Assembly: GCF_905475395.1 (NCBI RefSeq)
Contig: NC_058337.1
Coordinates: 11,272,983 to 11,336,982, forward strand
DNA length: 64,000 nt
Source of the DNA: Chrysoperla carnea
Lineage: Eukaryota; Arthropoda; Insecta; Neuroptera; Chrysopidae
Direction: 5' to 3'
Part shown: piece after piece, positions 2,735-52,800 of the stretch
Layout: every line of letters starts with the position of its first letter
How positions within the stretch are numbered: position 1 is the first letter of the stretch
The notes under the pieces: generated by a model
Seen by the model: the letters and a program-made list of their open reading frames with translations, nothing else
Told to the model about the DNA's origin: nothing
Databases searched by the model: none
Translations under genes and position numbers: made by a program

Positions 2735-3845
2735 CCGGACTTCTTGGATTCATGTCAAGGGCCCTACCAGGCCATTCGAGTTCTAGACACAGAGTGCAAT
2801 TTGAACCGATATCTTGAACCGCTTTCTATATTCGCCAAAGTAACCATGTCCTCTCAGCGCCTGTGCTATATAAAATTCTACTTCTCCATGCGATGTCATG
2901 TTCCATTTAATGCCATTCGGTATAAGTCTCTTTGTCCAAGCAGCCTTTCCGGTATTTGTCCCCAATCTTTCCTGCCATCATTCTTTGTAATTATTATCAA
3001 TCTCATCGGTGGTTTCTCTGTACCATGCTAACCGTTCACGCACTATCAAATCAATCGGTGGAATTCCTGCTAGTACCAGGGCTACCTCCGTCCAAAAAGT
3101 CCCAAAGCCAGAACAAACCCGAAGAGCAATCCTTCGTTGCACTTTCTCCAGTATATCGAGATTGCACTTGATTGACAGTTCATGGCCTCATATTGGACAT
3201 GCATATAGCATAATAGAATGGGCCACACCACTAAGAATCCTTCTTGACGAGATTTTTCGTCCACCAAAACATGGTATAAATCCTTACAGTTTCATAGCTG
3301 CCTTCTCCGACTTTATTGCGAATGCTTGGATCTGACGACTTGGATCTTCATACGAAAACTTATCCCAAAAACAACTCCTAGATAATATATAATTTTCTTT
3401 TTTGTGTCAATCTCTATCCCATCCGTATTAAGATGAACCATTGTAAGCCTCCTTCCGTCGTATAAAAGAACCGCCTCACATTTCTCTGATGCAACCTTTA
3501 GCCCCTTACCCTTTACTGCTTGAACTACATTAACGATAGCAGTATTAACATTTCCAATTAGTTCTTCTGTAGTTTTCGCCTTTATTGTTAGTACAGTATC
3601 ATCCGCATATCCGATAATACTGACTCCTTTACGCACCTCAGTATCCAGCACACTTTCGTAGGCCACGTTCAACAGTATTGGACCAAGTACGGAGCCTCGC
3701 GGTACACCCGACGTTATGTTAATAGTATGTTCGCCCACTATCAACTCGCTTTCTTCGCAATTCAGACATAATTACCGATCATGGTGCCGAGGAAAAAGCA
3801 TTCTTAATGTCTAGTGTAACTAACAAACAAAATTTACTGTTATAA
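2735..3845 (-). pseudogene. R1-clade non-LTR retrotransposon, reverse transcriptase remnant
   Basis: Read on the minus strand. Fragments in order: LVTLDIKNAFSSAP (RT block with the first catalytic Asp, near 3840-3780), SGVPRGSVLGPILLNVAYE (near 3711), GYADDTVL (catalytic YADD at about 3609-3598), then ALVLAGIPPIDLIVRERLAW, and the C-terminal ALRGHGYFGEYRKRF near 2850. VPRGSVLGP with YADDT and the GHGYF tail is typical of R1/Jockey-group elements. There is an apparent deletion between the first two blocks, plus in-frame stops and frame changes, so it is dead. Confidence 0.85.
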
Positions 3846-7360: not shown

Positions 7361-8008
7361 TCTATATATATAAAAAGAGAGTGTTTGTTTGTATGTCCCC
7401 GATTTTCCCTAAAACTAACCATTGACCTTCGGTAGGGGATTATGTCATTGGGTAGCCCTTAGGCTCCCATTGTGAATAAGGGAGTTTGGTGGGGGTGCAT
7501 TGTGAATAAGGGAGTTTGGTGGGGGTGGAATTAAAAATGATCTAGGAATTCATAGAAAATAGATTAAAAATAGTTCTAATAATTTTCAATAGATGGCGCC
7601 ACTGTCAATAGTACAATTTTCACTAGATGGCGCTACTGGCGCAAATGTCTTTCGATTTTTCTCGAAAATTCTGGAATGTTCCATGGATTTCTATCGAATT
7701 TTCTAGAATTTTCTCGAACATTCTGGAATGTTCTATGGATTTCTATCGAATTTTCTAGAACTTTCTCGAATATTCTCGAATGTTGTATGGATTTTTATTG
7801 AATTTTATCAAACTTTCTCGAACAATCTGGAATGTTCCATGGGTTTATGTCTAATTTTCTAGAATTTTCTCGAACATTCTAGAATGTTCTATGGATTTCT
7901 ATCGAATTTTCTAGAATTTTCTCGAACATTCTGGAATGTTCTATGGATTTCTATCGAATTTTCTAGAACTTTCTCGAATATTCTGGAATGTTCCATGGGT
8001 TTCTATCG
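7361..8008 (+). repeat. Interspersed repeat containing a 52-bp minisatellite array
   Basis: The left part starts TCTATATATATAAAAAGAGA at 7361. It contains a 30-bp exact tandem duplication (7468-7497 and 7498-7527, CATTGTGAATAAGGG...) and two ATAGATGGCGC/CTAGATGGCGC motifs. The right part is the 52-bp array annotated separately. A TC start after A plus an internal minisatellite would fit a Helitron-type non-autonomous element, but I could not find a convincing CTRR end with hairpin, so the class is left open. Confidence 0.45.
7659..8008 (+). repeat. 52-bp minisatellite, 6.7 units, each a run of heat-shock-element blocks
   Basis: Units begin at 7659, 7711, 7763, 7815, 7867, 7919 and 7971, exactly 52 bp apart, and the last is partial. 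The best-preserved unit junctions hold eight consecutive alternating GAA/TTC triplets at strict 5-bp spacing (GAATTTTCTAGAATTTTC, then TCGAACATTCTGGAATGTTC). That is the nGAAn arrangement bound by heat shock factor trimers. The remaining 12 bp of each unit is ATGGATTTCTATC-like. Unit 3 has changes that break one block, while units 2, 5 and 6 are nearly intact. Confidence 0.92.
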
Positions 8009-8118
8009 CTCTTTCCCTTACTTTTCCGTACACACAGAGAGTTTAACAGCTAGTTCACAATTATTAAGGTATTTTGACGATATATTCTGTTTCATCAACT
8101 AAACAATGTATCAATGTG

Positions 8119-8232
8119 TCAATTTTGAAATAAGTTCCAGAAAACACATTGTCAACATTTTTGTTATTGTTGACGTTTGAACAATAACAAAAATGTTGAC
8201 AATGTGTTTTCTGGAACTTATTTCAAAATTGA
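8119..8232. repeat. Perfect inverted repeat, 53-bp arms, 8-nt loop
   Basis: 8119-8171 and 8180-8232 are exact reverse complements (TCAATTTTGAAATAAG... and ...CTTATTTCAAAATTGA) around GACGTTTG. Pairing stops abruptly at both outer ends. A transcript would form a fully paired hairpin. It lies 110 bp after the heat-shock-element array. It may be the end of a foldback element or a recent inverted duplication. Confidence 0.95.
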
Positions 8233-9592: not shown

Positions 9593-12500
9593 TATATGTG
9601 TAACAGTCGTCGTATTAAATGTACATTTTCGGTCTCCACAAACACATCGTATGGCGCCTTGGGTGAAGAGGGTATTTATACACATATTACCAAGATTATT
9701 AGTAATGAGAAGGCCGCAATATTCTTTTGAAACAAATAGGTAAGGAAAAATATGTTTTTTTCCCTGCAAATTTTCTTATGATATAGTTACCAATTTTCTA
9801 CTTTTAATAGGCTACTTCTTCGAGGTGCATTACGCAGTGGTACAACAGGGAGAACGACAGCAAATCAAGCAGCTGGAAAAAATATGGCTGCATGTTTCTA
9901 TCCATATCAACCAACGTCGCAGAGTGATGATGATTCTTGTAGTCCAAAACGATATTCAAGTCGAACACCCTCGAAAGAAGATTTGTCACCAGGAAGGTAA
10001 ATACATTTATAACCAATCTATTTATTCAAATTACTCCAAACAAATAATAAAAAATGGCTAAGTTTTGTGTTGTTTTATAGTGCATAACTTTAAAAACCTC
10101 GAACGAGAATCCATAAAAGTATACATTTTAAACAATGTTGATGTTACAGTGAAAACTTGTATCCGGTCAAAACTACTGTTAGCTGGCGAAATTAGTCAAA
10201 AGTACTTTTGACTGCAGACTTTCGACAATAATAACTTAATTTTGTTTACTTTTACTTCAATTACTTTATCTTCAATTAAAGTTAATAAGCTTGAAAAATA
10301 GTTTTATCTCCATTCACAACAATTAAAAGTAAATTCGGCTTACTCTCTAGCGAGTTTATAACTAGAAATCTAAAACAACTTGGCCATTACAAAAAACGAC
10401 TCGTACACCATTCAACAAAGTCGTACACCACGGTATGAGTGAAGGTTTCTAAAAATGCACTTTTTACATTAAAATGAGACACCTTCACGTTTAAGGAAGG
10501 GAGAAAGTTGGGGAAGGGGTAGGGGGTAGGATTGGGGCCATAGTTGTATTAAACTGTTGATATTGACGTGCGATTAATATAATTAACACGATATGATGGT
10601 AATAAATAGTTATAGGGACAAAACCTTCATGTTTCGCTTACTTTTTTACATTTCGAGTAACTTTGATCTACCTTTGATCAGCTGTATCTCGGGCACTAAT
10701 GAGTCTAGAAAAACCTTTTAAATACCAAATTTTAGCCAATTTAATGTTCTACAACTTTGTAACCGAATATAGAACACAAAATTGGCTTAAGTAAGGAGAT
10801 ATAAGCGAAAAATTGTAAAAAGTTCGACAATTTTGGTGTTTTTGCTCCTCCCCCTCAAGTTAGCACAGGGTCCTCAAGGTCGAAAACTTATTATAGACAT
10901 CCTAGAGTACCCTCAAATAGCCTGTAAAAATTTCATTAACTTCGGAGTACTTTCCAGGTAGAAAGTACATGTCTACTGGAGTATGTACATTACGTGCAAT
11001 AAAGGATTTCAAAACAGGCGCTTCTTTTGTAATGCGTATAATTCAAAAACTACTTGACGGATTGTCAAGCTATTTTTTTTTTTTTTTTTTTGTAGCTAAT
11101 CTTAACAGGTTTTATTTAAATAAAAAATTATGTGACCATATCAACGGATATTTAGTTGTTATTTTCACTAGAATGAAAAATTTTATGGAAAAATGACATA
11201 TTTTTTTTAATATTCGGCCGTCATCTTTATTTATTTAAATGGTATGTTTTTCTTTTGATTAGAGATGTCAAGAAGAAACGATTGACACCTCAATCACTTA
11301 AATCGGTGCAACCGTTTTGATTATATAAATGTTTTAAATTATACAGACGCCATTTTGGAAAAGGTCCGCCATCTGGAATTCCAATGGATGAAATTTGTGT
11401 TTCCTCGGATGAAATCATTCATATTGGTCCCTTGTATCACTGTGTAAAGTGGCTTGCTTTTTTTGCATAAAATGCAGCTTCCGATGAAAATATCACCGTA
11501 AGCCCTAAGGCTATAATTGTACACAAAGATACCTCATTCTTATTGGTCCCTAGTATCACTGTGTAAAGTGGCTTGCTTTCTGCATAAAATGCAGCTTCCG
11601 ACGAAAATATCACCGTAAGCCCTAAGTCTATAATTGTACACAAAGATACCAACATAATGTTTTAAAACGAGATAAAAAAATATTTTATATTTAAAAAAAA
11701 AAATTATTTTCATTTTATCACTCTTTTACATGGGACTGAGAAATGTGACATGATTGTAGAGTGCGTACATTGAATCGTACACATAAGCGTCAACTTTTTA
11801 TAATTAATCTCTTACTGTGAAATAATCTTTGTACCAGTGGTCTTTAACATTTCCAATCTAGTTACTCTTTCTTGAAGGGAATGGGCAAAAATCAAATATC
11901 AAGTGTATTGGAAATGAATCAAGGACAGAGGTTGTCATTTGTCGGCTTTACTATTTCTCATATACATTAATGATTTGAACGCTTGGGTGGAAGATATACA
12001 GTTTGACAATCATCTCCCTAGCCATTTATAATATACTAGCGACCCGCCCCGGCTTCGCACGGGTGCAATGCAACGTTGAAGGTGCAATGCATAATAGATA
12101 GACATATACCATCACGGACTTTTCTGTAGACCTTTTCAATGTGTACAATATACATTATTTTGATAAAACTATTTACCATAGCGGCGCCATCTATTGATTA
12201 CTTACTCAACCCAGTCGAAAGGTATCGACATCTGTTAGAATCATTTGGAGTTAACAGATAATTGTGACTGTCAAATAATAACAGACAAATAATTAGCAAT
12301 AAATTAAAATTGCGACTATAATTTGAGATTTAAACTATCCTATCTCTCAAGTTGGATCGAACTGCACATGGTGTGCGAATTTTATTATAATCGGTTAAGT
12401 GGTTTAGGAGTCCATTGAGGAAAAACATTGTAACACGAGATTTATATATATTAAGATGAAGTAAGAAGAGTATAATATATAATATGCTTGAATAAAGCAT

Positions 12501-14766
12501 GAAAGCTGTCAATAAACACACCAAACCGACCTGGCTTTGTAATTGCTATTGTAATTGTAACACTTCTGTATTGTTTTCTTTGTTTTATTCATAAGAACGT
12601 CTTATTTCATATATTATACTCTTCATTTCAAATACACTTGATACTGATTTTTGCCAATTCCTACGCAACAAGTTGCACTTTTGTATATTGACTGTAAAGC
12701 GAGGATCATATCTTTATTTAGTCCTATTTTATATAGTTTCAGCTATAATAAATTCCTATCGACTTTATCAGCCGCTTTTTCAATATCTATGAAGCAAGTT
12801 TGTTGACGTTAGAAGTAAGTGTCAATCCGCGATAATTTGTTTGATCTCGAGTATCTCCTTTTCCTTTGTGCAGATTAACTATCAGTCGAGAAATGGAACG
12901 TTATTTTAAGATATTGTAGAAATAAATAAATAATTTAGTGGACGTCTATGATTTGACAAAGGACAAACTAACAAAGTTTTGAGGACAAAAAAACCATATG
13001 TGAGCTTCTATGTGTATATTCTCTGAGTTATCTTTTTAAATATTGAAGAAGTTTATTGACAGTACCTTTAACTTAAATAAATAACAAAGTCGCTTTATTT
13101 TTCTGCTATTTTAAAAATCAATTGAAATAATTTTGGTATTCATAAGGGCTTATTATTAATTTTATACATTTCAATAAGTTTCTACCCACTGGAAAAATGC
13201 TATACAATTCTTTGAAAGTTATTTCTTCTTTTTCCGTTTCTTACTTTCATTGTGAAAAATCTTTCTGATGAGTGAGATTACTACAGATTACACCATTTCT
13301 ATTTATCAACTTTCCACCTGCGTGGTTATACCAAATTTAATTCGATATTCAATGGTAATTATACCACATTCAATTGTATTATTTTAAAATATATTGCTTT
13401 TATTTTTTTCAGGATCTTGTATAAGACAAAATAATTTAAAAGAAAGTTTTTAACTTAAGGGGACTGATCACCTTGAGATTTTTTTTTCTTATATAAAACG
13501 GTTTTAAACCATTAGTATAATACCCACCCTAAAATTTCAGAAAAATAAATAAATATGTTTTTAAGTTATTCATATAATTTATATTGAATATGTATCGTAA
13601 ATTATCGGGTTTCATTTTCTTCAAATTTTTGTCAGCTTCACGTTTATAAAAATGTTTACCCTGTTAACTCGATGCCAAGCTTATCGATTCTTTCTCGATT
13701 GTCTTTATTTGTTCGTCTTGAGTTTCTTCAAGTATTGACTGGTCAAAATTTTGTTTTTTTTCTGTTGTTGTTAGTTTTTTTCAGCGTTTTGAAGTCAAAT
13801 TTTGGAAAAAAAAATCGAACAAACAAAATTTTCATTTTTATTATGAATCAAACTTTACATAATTTTTTATTTTTTTATTTCTAGTTTAGTAGACGGTGGA
13901 CCTTTTGGTGGAAGTTGTCAAATTCATGGACCAGTTGTTGGGGTACCACATTCAGAATCTGAAGATTTAAGTATGTCATGCGGAGGAATTGATGATGAAA
14001 TCAAAAGTCCAGTTTTAAGAAATCCAGCTTTTTCACATTCAAGATGTCCGCCAGAAATTCATAAATCATGTTTTTGTGTACGTTTTATTGCGGAACATAC
14101 AAAAATGTTAGAAGATTCAACAAAGGTAAAGCAATAACGTAGAAGATTTTTAATTTTTACCAAAAGTATTTTAATTTTGAACCCGTCGACTCTATTAACT
14201 CAGTTTTTTAAAAAGGGCGTAAATTCTTATTTTAACTAACATGAAAAAACTAGCTCTGGAAATCTGATATAGATGAAATATGGCAACCAAAAATATAGGT
14301 ATGGCCACGAGCTCCCAAAATTAAAATAACTTTTAAAATCGATAATTATTTTAACATTATATCCGGATAGAGTGCCAGTTGTCAGCTTGATACTCGACCA
14401 GAAAATGTTTCTTAGGGTACCTTTTAAATATTTCCGAATAAAAAACGTCAATTCTTGATCTTTCTTACAGAACCTACAAATCAGTTCGCAAATCGTCGTC
14501 CGTCAGTTATTGTTCTTCCCCGTGCTATCTAGTGATATAATAGGCTTTCCAGAAGGAAATCAAATACTTTTGAAGTTATTTCATCTCAATTAATTATGTT
14601 TCAGGTAAAAGAAGATTGGAAGTATGTGGCAATGGTATTGGATAGACTATTTTTATGGATATTCACATTAGCTGTATTTGCTGGAACAGCTGGAATTATT
14701 TTACAAGCACCAACATTATACGACGATCGTATACCCATTGATGAGAAATTTTCAAATTTTGGGTGA
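9593..14766 (+). CDS. Nicotinic acetylcholine receptor alpha-type subunit, C-terminal four exons (partial)
   Basis: Subunit of a neuronal acetylcholine-gated cation channel of the pentameric Cys-loop family, acting in the plasma membrane. Four exons are read: 9593-9739, 9811-9996, 13885-14125 and 14605-14766 (stop TGA at 14764-14766). Each is bounded by AG/GT and the phases agree. Exon one gives the end of transmembrane segment 3 and the start of the cytoplasmic loop ([20 protein letters not shown], then [20 protein letters not shown]), both nAChR hallmarks. Exons two and three are the variable intracellular loop, ending in the amphipathic [19 protein letters not shown]. The last exon is [20 protein letters not shown] (start of transmembrane segment 4) and a short extracellular tail after [13 protein letters not shown]. 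The 3.9-kb intron between exons two and three carries LINE scraps and repeats. The ligand-binding domain and segments 1-2 were not found in the preceding 9.6 kb, so the gene probably starts outside the window. The loop resembles the alpha1/alpha2/alpha3 group; I cannot settle which from this part. Confidence 0.93.
11416..11650. repeat. Tandem duplication, two 119-bp units
   Basis: CATTC-TATTGGTCCC opens the units at 11416 and 11535. Both contain GTATCACTGTGTAAAGTGGC, TGCATAAAATGCAGCTTCCG and AAAATATCACCGTAAGCCCT. They differ by a few substitutions and a short T-run. It lies in a receptor intron. Open frames here are by-products of the repeat. Confidence 0.85.
11880..12015 (+). pseudogene. LINE reverse transcriptase scrap, plus-strand piece
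   Basis: Plus-strand translation gives [19 protein letters not shown], matching the QG..LS.LLF..YINDL block of non-LTR reverse transcriptases. It is preceded by nucleotides GCAAAAATCAAATATCAAG that recur inverted near 12,640, so this and the next fragment derive from the same LINE family. It ends just before the repeat at 12,033. Confidence 0.7.
12033..12450 (+). repeat. Repeat family C, diverged copy C1
   Basis: Starts ACTAGCGACCCGCCCCGGC, the same end as the complement of the right end of copy C3 at 39.8 kb, and continues TTCGCACGGGTGCAATG. It includes GCGGCGCCATCTATTG and ends around a TTTATATATATTAAG tail. The ACTAGC...CCCGC...TTCGC start is a common insect repeat end. It sits in the large receptor intron. 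Confidence 0.6.
12600..12890 (-). pseudogene. LINE reverse transcriptase scrap, minus-strand piece
   Basis: Minus-strand translation gives [16 protein letters not shown], a stop, then [20 protein letters not shown] and [15 protein letters not shown]. This matches the F.DFEKAFD.V.R catalytic block and the stretch after it of non-LTR reverse transcriptases, but with an AAD substitution. It belongs just before the plus-strand piece at 11,880-12,015 in protein order, so the two halves now face each other. Confidence 0.75.
12891..13884. other. Receptor intron, 3' part
   Basis: T-rich sequence ending in the TTTTTTATTTCTAG acceptor used at 13,885. No repeat family from elsewhere in the window recognised; the 70-codon frame at 13,672-13,884 is T-rich noise. 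Confidence 0.5.
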
Positions 14767-23533: not shown

Positions 23534-24017
23534 ACTAGCTGTGAACTACCCGCTTTGCTGGGCAACATCCCCACTTGCACCCCTCCCTCCACATTTCCTT
23601 GCGTGGGATAAGTTTTGTAATGTACACGTCATGCTCTTTTATTTGATACCCCACTTAGGTATATTTGTAAATATTCGATAATTCCTTCCCACTTTCTCGC
23701 TACACCTTTCTACCCTCCGAAGGTTAAAAGTAGATAAAAACAATAGATCTTTGAAGCTGGTTGTATATCGTGTCAATATTAGAGCTTAATCGATGCACAA
23801 CTTTTTTAGTTTTTGAAGCATATCCCTTTCAACCCCTATTTCAACCCCTTACTCTACTATAATATGGATGTATTATACATAAAAACCTTCCTCTTGAATC
23901 ACTCTATCTATTAAAAAAAAACCGCATCAAAATCCGTTGCGTAGTTTCAAAGATTTAAGCATACAAACGACATAGGGACATAGGGACAGAGAAAGCTTCT
24001 TTGTTTTATACTATGTA
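23534..24017 (+). repeat. Repeat family C, copy C2, inserted in family G
   Basis: Starts ACTAGCTGTGAACTACCCGC and ends TTCTTTGTTTTATACTATGTA. It contains AATCCGTTGCGTAGTTTCAA followed by an AAGCATACAAACGACATAGG-type 3' region. Copy C4 is nearly identical over its whole length on the other strand. The interrupted host sequence is continuous at about 21,270. Confidence 0.85.
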
Positions 24018-24380
24018 TTGATGATGATATTGATGTAATTGGATTTTTGAGCTATTTCATTTTTGTTGCCTTGAACATTTATTTTTTTATTTTTCTGTAT
24101 TGTTGTAGTTACGAGTTTGTGGACTATTGAAGAGTTGATTTGAGTTCTGAAGTTAAAATTTTACATTCATATATTTAACTTGAACTGTAATAGTGTCCCA
24201 TTTTTTAACGCAAGGGCTTAAAACTTCATAACCCAACCAACTCCTCTATAGTCAACAAACTGAAGATATCAAAATTATAATTACAACAATACAGAGTTAA
24301 CAAAAAATAAAATAAGAAATGTTCAAAACAACAAAATTGAAATAGCTAAGAAACTTCAATGGTGCTAGATATGATAATAA

Positions 24381-49800: not shown

Positions 49801-52800
49801 CTAGTTCGAAGCAAACCAATACCTTTATTCCATTTTCATTTGTTGCATTACGATGAACTAATTCAATAATAACTGCTGAACAAAATAATGGTATTTTTTG
49901 ATCCCATACATTCAAAACACCTAATACTTTCATGACATTTGTTTCATGCGCCGAATATAAATAAATTTTTCGTCCTTTTGGTTTTAAGGTCCCATCAAGT
50001 TTTTCTCCAATATTTTTTAACATCTTTCGTAAACAGTTACCTAAAAGTAATTATGAATATAGTTACCAAGCTCCATTCTCTACCGCGAGCCCATAGCGAA
50101 GTGAAATTTTTATGAACATTCAAGATAATGGAATCAAATGCTTATTTTCTTAAATTAAGTATTAAGATCGTTGACTCGAGAAATATTTACTTGTTATAAG
50201 AACATCCACAGCTAAATAAACGCATCTACTCCAATCCAATAAGTTTTTTTTTACAATATAATAAAAAAAATTTGGAAAACGGTTGACCCTGCAGGTCATC
50301 CCTGTAACTTCCCGCTAAGTATTGACTCATAACAGTTTTTGAAGCTTCATGAAGAATCTTTAAGTTTCAATTGATAGAACAAAAATTTTGAGGTTATTCC
50401 GAAAAAACGCTTTTTTGGATTTTCTTTCGTCAACGATAACTCACGAACGAATCAACCGATTTTGACCGGACTGATGGTGATCGACGTGGTTTTTTGATGT
50501 TGAGAGCTGATTAGTTTTTGGAATTGATCGATACAGCCGTTTAAAAGTTATTCAAAAAAAACCACTTAAACAAAAACTTTTTTTGCAGTTTTTTTGAGAT
50601 TTCTCGAAATCTATCGGTTCGAATCGGCCTCAAAATCTAATTTTGGTCAAGCCCTTTCGAATGGCACCAACTGCGATCAAATCGGACAAGCCGTTCAAAA
50701 GTTATGAGAGGTTTACACACACACACACTCATACATACATACAGCCATACAGACACCCTCGCGGAAGTAGTCAGGGAAGCTTCCTGACACCTTAAAACGT
50801 CGAGATCTGATGAAAACTCGATTTTGGCAAAACGGGGTGAAAACAATAACTTCCCTATTTTCTTAGCGGGAAGTTAAAAAAAGATGATTTCGGACAGACT
50901 ATAGGAATATAAATAAGTAAATTATACAATACCTCCATTCAACCTTTTCAGAAGTGTAGTGTAACTTTCCATTTCTAATTCTTTGGCAGCCAATGAACTA
51001 ATTGGTTCTGGGTAAACTCTTTGTACCCACTTTGGCAAAGTTAAATTCAAATGTTCCTAAAAAAATGTTGTTTATTTTTATAAAAATTTAATTACAAGTG
51101 CAATATTATAATTACCTCGACAAGAAATGTTTGTCTCAAATCAAATATCTCTCTCAATTTATTTAATTCTTTTCCAGAATTTTCTTCAATATATTTAACT
51201 AAATTTTCATTTTCTTTCAAAACTTCCGAATCGATTTCATTAATAAATTTATTACGAATTTCAATATATTTTGGACAATATGAAGTAGGATCTACAAGCC
51301 ACTGAAAATTATGTAAAAAATTGATATAATTATTATAATCAATAAAACAAAGTCGCTTTCTCTGTCCCTATGTCCCTATGTCCCTTTGTATGCTTATATC
51401 TTTGAAACTACGCAACGGATTTTGATGCGATTTTTTAATAGATAGAGTGATTCAAGAGGAAGGTTTTTATGTATAATACATCCATATTATAGTAGAGTAA
51501 GGGGTTGAAATAGGGGTTGAAAGGAATATGCTTCAAAAAATAAAAAAGTTGTGCATTGATTAAGCTCAAATATTGACACGATATACAACCAGCTTCAAAG
51601 ATCTATTGTTTTTATCTACTTTTAACCTTGGGAGGGTAGAAAGGTGTAGCGAGAAAGTGGGAAGGAATTATCGAATATTTACAAATATACCTAAGTGGGG
51701 TATCAAATAAAAGAGCATGACATGTACATTACAAAACTGTTATCCCACGCAAAGAAATGTGGAGGGAGGGGACAAGTGGGGATGTTCACAGCTAGTGTTA
51801 TATTAACCGACAAAAAATAATGAATCAGTGGCTAAGCGGTCTAAGGCGTTAGTCTTTGACAGATTGTCTACTTAGACTTAGGTTGCGGGTTCGAATCCAG
51901 GCAGCGGAAATGTCAACGATTATAATTAATGGGGGCGGTAGAACTGATCACATTGTCGTCGCTTGGATAAGAACGAAGTAACCGACTCCACCCACATCAA
52001 AGTTGTAATTGTAAATATGGAGTAATAATAAATAGTAGTTGAAACGACATAAATAGTTCTTAAAAAACAATTATTTTTAATATCGTAATATTTTTTCCAA
52101 TATGTCACTTATTCTACACTAATTATTTTTCGAAAATAAAAATATTTACATAATCTTCATGCAATCGTAAAAAATTGACTGGTATTGGTTGCCATAATAA
52201 ATCCTCGTCCCATTGTTGAACTGAATTTGGTGGGAATAATCCAGCCAATACTAATTGAGCAGTCATTTTTGTGCGATCAAAATCAGTAGAAACTGTTTGC
52301 ACTATTTCCGCATCATAAAATTCACCCAAAAAATCATTGTAGCGTTGTCGTAACATTTTACCCAGTTTATAAGCTCGTTGTTTGCCGCGCTGTAAAAAAA
52401 ATAGAAAAGTTAAATAAAAGTTAATGTTATTTAAGTGAAGTATTTTTACATTTGTCAATTGTCCTTGAGTAACAGGATACAAATCAACGCTACGATGTGG
52501 ATCATTTGGATATCCTTCTCCGGGATCCTCTATTGTGCGATCACCATGACGAAAAGTCTAAAAAATATATAAAAGATAAGTTAAAGCTTAAAGTTAATTA
52601 ATGCATGGATTAATAAATAACGGTTTTAAAGACTTGGTTATAAATAAATTACATTGGGTAACGAAATGCAAAAATTGGATAATAATAAAAATTTCATCAG
52701 ATTAAACTCTCTTGGTTGAGACGTTGGCTTAGTGCCTTTTCTTCTATTAAGCTTACTGAGTTTTGTCATCTTTCTTGCTTAGTAGCATCAGTTAACCGTC

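What the first reader, a model, noticed from the sequence alone, without database searches (positions are those of the whole stretch)
7659..8008. Minisatellite whose 52-bp unit is a near-continuous heat shock factor binding platform
Seven units at exactly 52-bp spacing, each with up to eight alternating GAA/TTC triplets at 5-bp spacing, give dozens of contiguous HSF sub-sites in 350 bp, far more than a typical heat-shock promoter. HSE-bearing Helitrons are known in Caenorhabditis; here an insect repeat with a TCTATATATATA start carries a comparable array. It could be a decoy, an enhancer for a nearby transcript (the receptor gene is 1.6 kb away) or a heat-inducible repeat.
Basis: partly seen in the sequence, partly recalled or inferred. 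Interest (0 to 1): 0.85.

Follow-up and report, generated by a model that had tools for sequence, protein, structure and literature searches.

The report
Lacewing jumping DNA carrying heat-shock switches
A mobile DNA element present in hundreds of copies in a green lacewing carries a ready-made array of likely binding sites for the heat-shock regulator, and a related element in the same genome has such sites in front of its transposase gene, which suggests that heat could switch these elements on.

Summary
Confirmed and extended. The 52-bp array (7657-8008) holds 31 perfect heat shock elements (HSEs), with runs of up to 8 in-register subsites; 2000 dinucleotide shuffles gave at most 2. It is part of a 693-bp non-autonomous Helitron (7361-8053), apparently intronic in a nicotinic receptor gene of Chrysoperla carnea. 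About 300 copies exist (301 places match the 3' end, control 0). Thirty copies picked by their 5' part, window copy included, all have an 8-subsite run; 29 have at least 10 HSEs. Family ends are canonical: A|TC, a 3' hairpin, CTAG|T; the window copy has lost its hairpin. Three hsp70 upstream regions of the same genome have at most one perfect HSE each. A putatively autonomous Helitron (promoter region listed at 100% in 16 places) has a four-subsite HSE 19 bp before a TATATAAG box upstream of its Rep/helicase frame, placed much as in those hsp70 genes. HSE-rich Helitrons are published for Caenorhabditis, whose authors found no enrichment in other surveyed genomes. HSF binding and heat induction are inferred. 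HSE cores show no constraint after insertion, so a host enhancer or decoy role is unsupported; a hitch-hiking minisatellite is the main rival.

The parts
7361..8053 (+). Non-autonomous Helitron copy, A|TC...CTAG|T; lacks about 127 bp including the 3' hairpin found in sister copies
   Evidence: 30 loci (window copy and 29 others) share the 5' boundary region, and 28 of 30 end in CAGCTAG followed by T; closest sisters L061, L071, L073 are 820-822 bp against 693 bp here; the window 3' end does not fold
7361..7378 (+). Helitron 5' terminus TCTATATATATAAAAAGA
   Evidence: its first 13 bases (an A+T-rich stretch) are also the start of the putatively autonomous Helitron (by reading)
7468..7527 (+). 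30-bp duplication inside the element, present in some copies and absent in others
   Evidence: present in the printed L060, absent in the printed L070; other copies not checked for it
7590..7600 (+). CTCF-core-like motif 1 TAGATGGCGCC
   Evidence: 3 matches in the window against mean 0.2, maximum 2 in 60 shuffles; that this is a CTCF motif is recalled, not from a call
7624..7634 (+). CTCF-core-like motif 2 TAGATGGCGCT
   Evidence: at least one match to the same pattern in 26 of 28 copies with both ends
7657..8008 (+). 52-bp x 6.8 heat shock element array, 31 perfect three-subsite HSEs
8009..8053 (+). Helitron 3' end with the hairpin segment missing, ending TTTAACAGCTAG before T
   Evidence: sister copies read CCCAGCGAAGCGGGTTTAACAGCTAG|T, hairpin -4.4 kcal/mol, z -2.0
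9594..9740 (+). Downstream exon of a nicotinic acetylcholine receptor subunit gene; it begins inside the transmembrane domain, so the element appears to be intronic
   Evidence: Pfam Neur_chan_memb 1.8e-12, profile positions 73-116 of 233; a second exon at 14608-14763; the preceding exon was not found in the window by a scan for a few protein motifs

Best explanation
The array is the HSF-binding module of a young, high-copy, non-autonomous Helitron family in Chrysoperla carnea. SHOWN: the Helitron ends, the copy number, the presence of the HSE array in the sampled copies, and a putatively autonomous Helitron in the same genome that starts with the same 13 bases and has an HSE just upstream of a TATA box and a 1462-aa Rep/helicase frame, at a spacing like that of three hsp70 genes of the genome. 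INFERRED: on heat or proteotoxic stress HSF trimers would load on the array and keep copies in open, transcribed chromatin, while HSF also induces Rep/helicase from the partner's promoter. Source DNA and transposase would then be available together, so transposition is coupled to heat stress. A side effect would be to scatter strong HSEs near host genes, including this receptor gene. The 52-bp unit probably arose by duplication of a decamer HSE, possibly copied from a Helitron promoter HSE.
For: Helitron identity: common 5' end and CTAG|T in 28 of 30 loci; hairpin; 301 3' ends with up to 2 mismatches, control 0. HSE specificity: TTC-N2-GAA 18 and GAA-N2-TTC 21 times, all other gaps from 0 to 8 nt 4 in all; within runs of 3 or more, T follows TTC in 20 of 22 and spacers are self-complementary in 8 of 37, about chance. 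Kept in the family: 30 of 30 copies picked by their 5' part have a run of 8, 29 of 30 have at least 10 HSEs, mean 24.6 (L103 among them is the window copy). Compared with hsp70: upstream regions L141-L143 (3 of 9 full-length single-frame hsp70 matches) have longest perfect runs of 3, 3 and none. Partner: L131 has HSE GAAATTTCTCGAATATTC ending 19 bp before TATATAAG; all 3 hsp70 regions carry a one-mismatch HSE at -28; its promoter region scored at 22 candidates, 16 rows listed at 100% over all 420 bases, 14 of them at the top score. Array and partner HSE match at 21 of 23 bases; 18 of 2000 random-spacer HSEs score as well as the 20-base core. Precedent: HSF-1 and Pol II gain and up-regulation near Caenorhabditis Helitron HSEs (PMC6927752: abstract, sections 6, 8, 9, 12, 26 read, passages).
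Against: No functional data. HSE cores show no constraint after insertion. Ten-bp tandem repeats give long alternating runs in prokaryotes. The array lies near the 3' end of the element, not at a promoter. The 3' ends of this family and of the putatively autonomous Helitron differ, and the shared 5' bases are A+T-rich, so cross-mobilisation is assumed. Its promoter shows no significant similarity to the three hsp70 regions, and its TATA-to-ATG distance is 440 bp against 180-206 bp, so capture of an hsp70 promoter is not shown. Counting one-mismatch HSEs, one hsp70 region (L142) has seven, so hsp70 promoters are less poor in HSEs than the perfect count says. Twenty Rep/helicase loci showed no HSE within 1.5 kb of the domain, though that range misses the L131 promoter too.
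Confidence: 0.5

Rival explanations
1. Hitch-hiking minisatellite: a decamer happened to expand inside a Helitron, as tandem repeats often do in this superfamily, and the HSE resemblance has no role in transposition, even if HSF sometimes binds it.
For: The unit is five decamers; 50 prokaryotic and viral stretches with 7-subsite runs exist, the three richest being plain 10-bp repeats; no core constraint between copies; within the array, shifted masks look as conserved as the HSE cores; tandem repeats are usual in Helitron relatives (PMC7492417 abstract, PMC4067079 and PMC12692304 passages).
Against: Between decamers cores are kept (21 of 24 lag-10 matches) while spacers differ (5 of 12, partly by construction); T follows TTC in 20 of 22; a separate HSE stands at the promoter of the putatively autonomous Helitron.
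Confidence: 0.33
2. Host-co-opted regulator: this copy is an intronic heat-responsive enhancer of the receptor gene, or the family is a decoy that titrates HSF.
For: Apparent intronic position about 1.6 kb before an exon; about 300 copies with about 25 HSEs each would be a sizeable HSF sink.
Against: No constraint on HSE cores among 30 copies; this copy lacks the family's hairpin segment. Whether copies lie near stress genes was not tested.
Confidence: 0.07
3. The array is a structural or Rep-binding repeat whose palindromic triplets form hairpins in single-stranded Helitron DNA.
For: One part of the array (7657-7800) folds better than shuffles (z -2.6, 1 of 200 as good); imperfect inverted repeats at 71-74%.
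Against: Spacers between triplets are self-complementary in only 8 of 37 cases, about chance, although palindromes would need them to be; the canonical 3' hairpin is separate.
Confidence: 0.1

Closest known systems
HSE-bearing Helitrons of Caenorhabditis (HelitronY1_CE, HelitronY4_CE and others; Garrigues et al. 2019, PMC6927752)
   Same: Helitrons carrying dense HSE clusters (their mark is more than 10 HSEs per 1-kb window), dispersed genome-wide, mostly non-autonomous
   Different: Insect (Neuroptera), a 52-bp unit of five decamers; their survey of UCSC metazoan genomes with annotated Helitrons found HSE enrichment only in its three Caenorhabditis species; HSF occupancy untested here; sequence homology to nematode Helitrons not tested
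Non-autonomous Helentrons/HINEs and DINE-1 with central satellite-like repeats (PMC7492417 abstract, PMC4067079 passages)
   Same: Rolling-circle elements that carry and disperse short tandem arrays
   Different: This one has canonical Helitron ends (TC, CTAG, A|T), and its array is an HSE; the parts of those papers that I saw speak of no transcription-factor site
ISY Helitron of Drosophila miranda carrying MSL complex binding sites (review PMC7168160, passage)
   Same: A Helitron that spreads many copies of a site for a host chromatin factor
   Different: Dosage-compensation sites, not HSEs
gypsy insulator, 350 bp with 12 Su(Hw) sites (PMC7168160, passage)
   Same: Array of about 350 bp of repeated binding sites for one host factor inside a transposable element
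   Different: Retrotransposon; insulator protein, not HSF
ONSEN of Arabidopsis (search-listing abstracts PMC8376061 and PMC9340270; passage in PMC9032817)
   Same: Heat-activated transposable element
   Different: Copia-like retrotransposon of plants; details of its HSEs recalled, not read

Membership tests
Helitron (canonical, non-autonomous) | 5' TC and 3' CTRR termini | tested here: met
   CTAG in 28 of 30 loci (none found within 400 bp in L062 and L063); TC in 26 of those 28 by reading (L053 and L071 lack it); both present in the window copy
Helitron (canonical, non-autonomous) | 16-20 nt palindrome about 11 nt before the 3' end | tested here: met
   Hairpin sequence in 23 of 28 copies by strict pattern; folds at -4.4 kcal/mol, z -2.0, ending 10 nt from the end. 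Not met in the window copy itself, which lacks the segment
Helitron (canonical, non-autonomous) | Insertion between A and T | tested here: met
   T follows CTAG in 28 of 28; the script's fixed position gave A in 24 of 28, and allowing for shifted starts A precedes TC in 26 of the 26 copies that have TC, by reading
Helitron (canonical, non-autonomous) | No target-site duplication; empty sites | not tested
   No allelic or sister-species empty site was available
Helitron (canonical, non-autonomous) | Rep/helicase source in the genome | tested here: met
   64 matches to PF14214, seven of the first twenty with an open frame of 1462 aa; that it mobilises this family is not tested
Heat shock element array | NGAANNTTCNNGAAN in perfect 5-bp register | tested here: met
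   31 in 352 bp; array shuffles mean 0.05, maximum 2
Heat shock element array | HSF occupancy and heat-dependent transcription | not testable with these tools
   Needs ChIP or CUT&RUN and RNA-seq
Caenorhabditis-type HSE-Helitron | Helitron with more than 10 HSEs per 1-kb window | tested here: met
   31 in the window copy, 29 of 30 copies picked by the 5' part have at least 10 (lowest 9 and 11, so the same 29 have more than 10), counted over the element rather than a fixed 1-kb window
Caenorhabditis-type HSE-Helitron | Common descent with nematode Helitrons | not tested
   No nematode genome was searched

The most novel reading that the evidence does not exclude
Helitrons of an insect have independently wired themselves to the heat shock response at both levels: a putatively autonomous element drives its Rep/helicase from an hsp70-like HSE/TATA promoter, and its small relatives carry an amplified HSE platform as an accessibility and amplification signal. 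HSF would then coordinate transposase and substrate, and the platform itself would be a tandemly multiplied Helitron promoter HSE.
Probability: 0.3. Interest if true: 0.88.

Novelty: new variant of a known kind. Interest (0 to 1): 0.74.

Why it matters
In the published survey, HSE-loaded Helitrons were confined to Caenorhabditis. A second case in an insect, together with a recently amplified element that has an HSE-type promoter at its transposase gene, would make stress capture by Helitrons a recurrent strategy. It also gives a direct, cheap test: does heating lacewings induce Rep/helicase, load HSF on about 300 copies, and rewire nearby genes? Chrysoperla is used in biological control (recalled), so heat-driven genome variation in it is of practical interest.

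Tried and rejected
Exact unit patterns in viral contigs and genome contigs, and blastn of the element against plasmids: no match. Translated array ORF against the protein collection: no candidate. 5' end pattern and CTCF-like pattern in viral contigs: none. STAT-type TTCN3GAA: 0 in the array; TTCN4GAA: 4, so STAT rejected. Palindrome pressure rejected. Purifying selection on HSE cores: within the array core columns carry 5 mutations in 24 columns against 18 in 28 (permutation p = 0.044), but shifted masks do as well or better, and between copies there is no difference, so not claimed. Capture of an hsp70 promoter: not supported by alignment. Early view that the missing 3' hairpin argued against a Helitron: overturned by sister copies. 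A count of 5' ends and of five-subsite HSE runs in the whole genome was asked for and never answered.

Full report
Observation. The array at 7657-8008 is real: 6.8 units of 52 bp. It contains runs of 5, 8, 7, 7, 8 and 8 in-register alternating GAA/TTC triplets plus two runs of 2. With the HSE definition in the methods of Garrigues et al. (PMC6927752, section 26; their section 9 prints the motif differently) it holds 31 of the 34 HSEs of the 64-kb window. Shuffled arrays never exceed 2 such HSEs in 2000 trials, and none of 5000 arrays of shuffled units reaches the observed count, the largest being 7. GAA and TTC stand at the HSE gap of 2 nt 39 times; all other gaps from 0 to 8 nt give 4.

A caution about chance. 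The unit is five decamers, TTCTAGAATT TTCTCGAACA TTCTGGAATG TTCTATGGAT TTCTATCGAATT, the last with two extra bases. Decamer repeats make alternating runs by themselves: the 7-subsite pattern was found in 41 stretches of the prokaryote collection and 9 viral stretches, and the three richest of these 50 are plain 10-bp repeats; 3 of the 50 exceed 10 HSEs per kb and none reaches 31. In the host genome of 559 Mb the same pattern has 914 matches on each strand and none with the reversed control. Only about 100 places were listed. The 58 positions that I retyped from them, up to 9.66 Mb of contig C1, form 17 clusters; 14 of the 17 lie within 500 bp of a 3' end of the family described below, 3 do not. 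Of the 15 listed 3' ends in that stretch 14 have a cluster and 1 has none.

Host. A gene of the window, exons joined by eye, matches a protein of Chrysoperla carnea at 100% over 219 aa, on a contig of 139,979,878 bases, the length of contig C1 of the window's own assembly. The assembly has 559,487,470 bases. Exons at 9594-9740 and 14608-14763 belong to a nicotinic acetylcholine receptor subunit. The first begins inside the transmembrane domain, so the element most likely lies in an intron of that gene; the preceding exon was not found in the window by a scan for a few motifs.

The element. Thirty loci fetched by the array (the window copy and 29 others; 312 first-look candidates, 40 scored) share the 5' boundary at 7361, A|TCTATATATATA, with shifted or changed starts in a few. 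Twenty-eight of the 30 end in CAGCTAG, each time followed by T. The full family reads CCCAGCGAAGCGGGTTTAACAGCTAG|T; the hairpin folds at -4.4 kcal/mol, z -2.0, and matches a strict pattern in 23 of 28. These are the canonical Helitron features as given in PMC4067079 and PMC6544945 (passages). The window copy is 693 bp against 820-822 bp in its closest sisters and lacks the hairpin segment; a passage of PMC6544945 says that changing the hairpin had little effect on the bat Helitron Helraiser. The 3' end pattern with up to 2 mismatches has 301 places and 0 in the control; this counts 3' ends, so relatives that share the end would be included.

HSEs in the family. Because the first sample was picked by the array, a second was picked by the 5' 296 bp only (30 loci of 40 scored, 313 candidates). 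It includes the window copy (L103) and overlaps the first sample. All 30 have a run of 8; 29 of 30 have at least 10 HSEs, range 9 to 32, mean 24.6 (the mean is my sum of its rows). Two of the 30 (L110, L122) had no 3' end found and were scored over 1000 bases. Both samples are the tool's best matches, so old and decayed copies are under-represented. Between the 30 array-picked copies there are 25 substitutions in 10,560 bases, and core positions are as variable as others (10 of 132 against 13 of 220 sites, p = 0.66). The sampled copies are young and, once inserted, not visibly constrained. This counts against a host function of individual copies.

Comparison with the host's heat-shock genes. 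Regions of about 800 bp upstream of three hsp70 genes (the + members of three head-to-head pairs, 3 of 9 full-length single-frame matches; L141-L143) have longest perfect runs of 3, 3 and none. Each has an HSE with one mismatch 28 bp before TATATAAG; counting HSEs with up to one mismatch there are 2, 7 and 4. That these genes are heat-induced was not tested. In perfect HSEs the array is far denser than these promoters.

A putatively autonomous relative. PF14214 has 64 matches in the genome, and a group of nearly identical copies has an open frame of 1462 aa or close to it. In L131 the sequence before that frame reads HSE GAAATTTCTCGAATATTC, 19 bp, TATATAAG, with one-mismatch HSEs at -61 and -27. 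A perfect run of 4 or more turned up twice in 60 shuffles of the 64-kb window, so one here by chance is unlikely. The 420-bp promoter region had 22 candidates, of which 16 rows are listed at 100% over the whole length, 14 at the top score. The element starts A|TCTATATATATAA, like the non-autonomous family (3 copies compared), and in L131 ends CCCGGGCGAAGCCGGGTTTTTAAGCTAG|T (one copy read). Its length is about 5.3 kb. The other Rep/helicase loci fetched showed no HSE within 1.5 kb of the domain (20 loci, this group among them), but the L131 promoter lies just outside that range, so absence there says little; one other element, L132, has none in 6 kb. Array and promoter HSE share 21 of 23 bases; 18 of 2000 HSEs with random spacers score as well as the 20-base core. 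There is no significant homology between this promoter and the three hsp70 regions, and its TATA-to-ATG distance is 440 bp against 180-206 bp.

Mechanism. Shown: a high-copy Helitron with an HSE platform in the sampled copies, and an HSE/TATA arrangement at the transposase gene of a recently amplified relative. Inferred: HSF binding (cooperative binding of the isolated DNA-binding domain to four- and five-site HSEs is reported for C. elegans HSF-1, PMC9148306, passages), heat induction of Rep/helicase, opening of copies, and coupling of transposition to stress. Garrigues et al. proposed the same selfish logic for Caenorhabditis. The main rival is a hitch-hiking decamer minisatellite.

Novelty. 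Garrigues et al. report that enrichment of HSEs in Helitrons was limited to the three Caenorhabditis species among UCSC metazoan genomes with annotated Helitrons. Ten literature searches in the held library showed no insect HSE-Helitron among the titles and abstract starts listed, which were capped at 8 to 15 per search; a search for Chrysoperla with Helitron gave 0 papers. Most subscription papers are not held.

Noticed in passing
L131:101-640 (own genome C5:68390500-68391039): Upstream of a 1462-aa Rep/helicase frame: four-subsite HSE 19 bp before TATATAAG, the region listed at 100% in 16 places; the transposase of a recently active Helitron may be heat-inducible.
   Followed up: partly
7590-7634: Two CTCF-core-like motifs TAGATGGCGC 34 bp apart inside the element; at least one in 26 of 28 copies with both ends, and two inverted AGATGGCGCC motifs upstream of the promoter in L131. 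A third match in the window is at 12183-12193 (-).
   Followed up: partly
23535-24021 (-) and 51339-51795 (+): Two copies of another non-autonomous Helitron family, A|TCAATA...CACAGCTAG|T; the second lacks the segment with GCCCAGCAAAGCGGGT, much as the window's HSE copy lacks its hairpin. The 3' piece of the first did not fold better than shuffles as tested.
   Followed up: partly
own genome C3:3767553-3797102: Six Rep/helicase domains at a regular spacing of 5813-5815 bp, which look like head-to-tail tandem Helitrons.
   Followed up: no
own genome C6, about 4-13 Mb: Many of the 64 Rep/helicase matches lie on one part of contig C6.
   Followed up: no
8119-8232: Perfect 53-bp inverted repeat with an 8-nt loop just downstream of the element, a likely foldback element.
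   Followed up: no
11415-11650: 117-bp direct duplication, 94% matches, between receptor exons.
   Followed up: no
about 37.2-37.4 kb and 51-52.5 kb (-): Two paralogous venom acid phosphatase Acph-1-like genes; the second matches a Chrysoperla carnea protein at 100%; the first seen by reading only.
   Followed up: partly
3316-3744 (-): Reverse transcriptase fragment, RVT_1 4.7e-13.
   Followed up: no
L004 (viral contig), 10-subsite run: An imperfect decamer array with spacers much like the lacewing's in a G+C-rich viral contig; probably coincidence.
   Followed up: no
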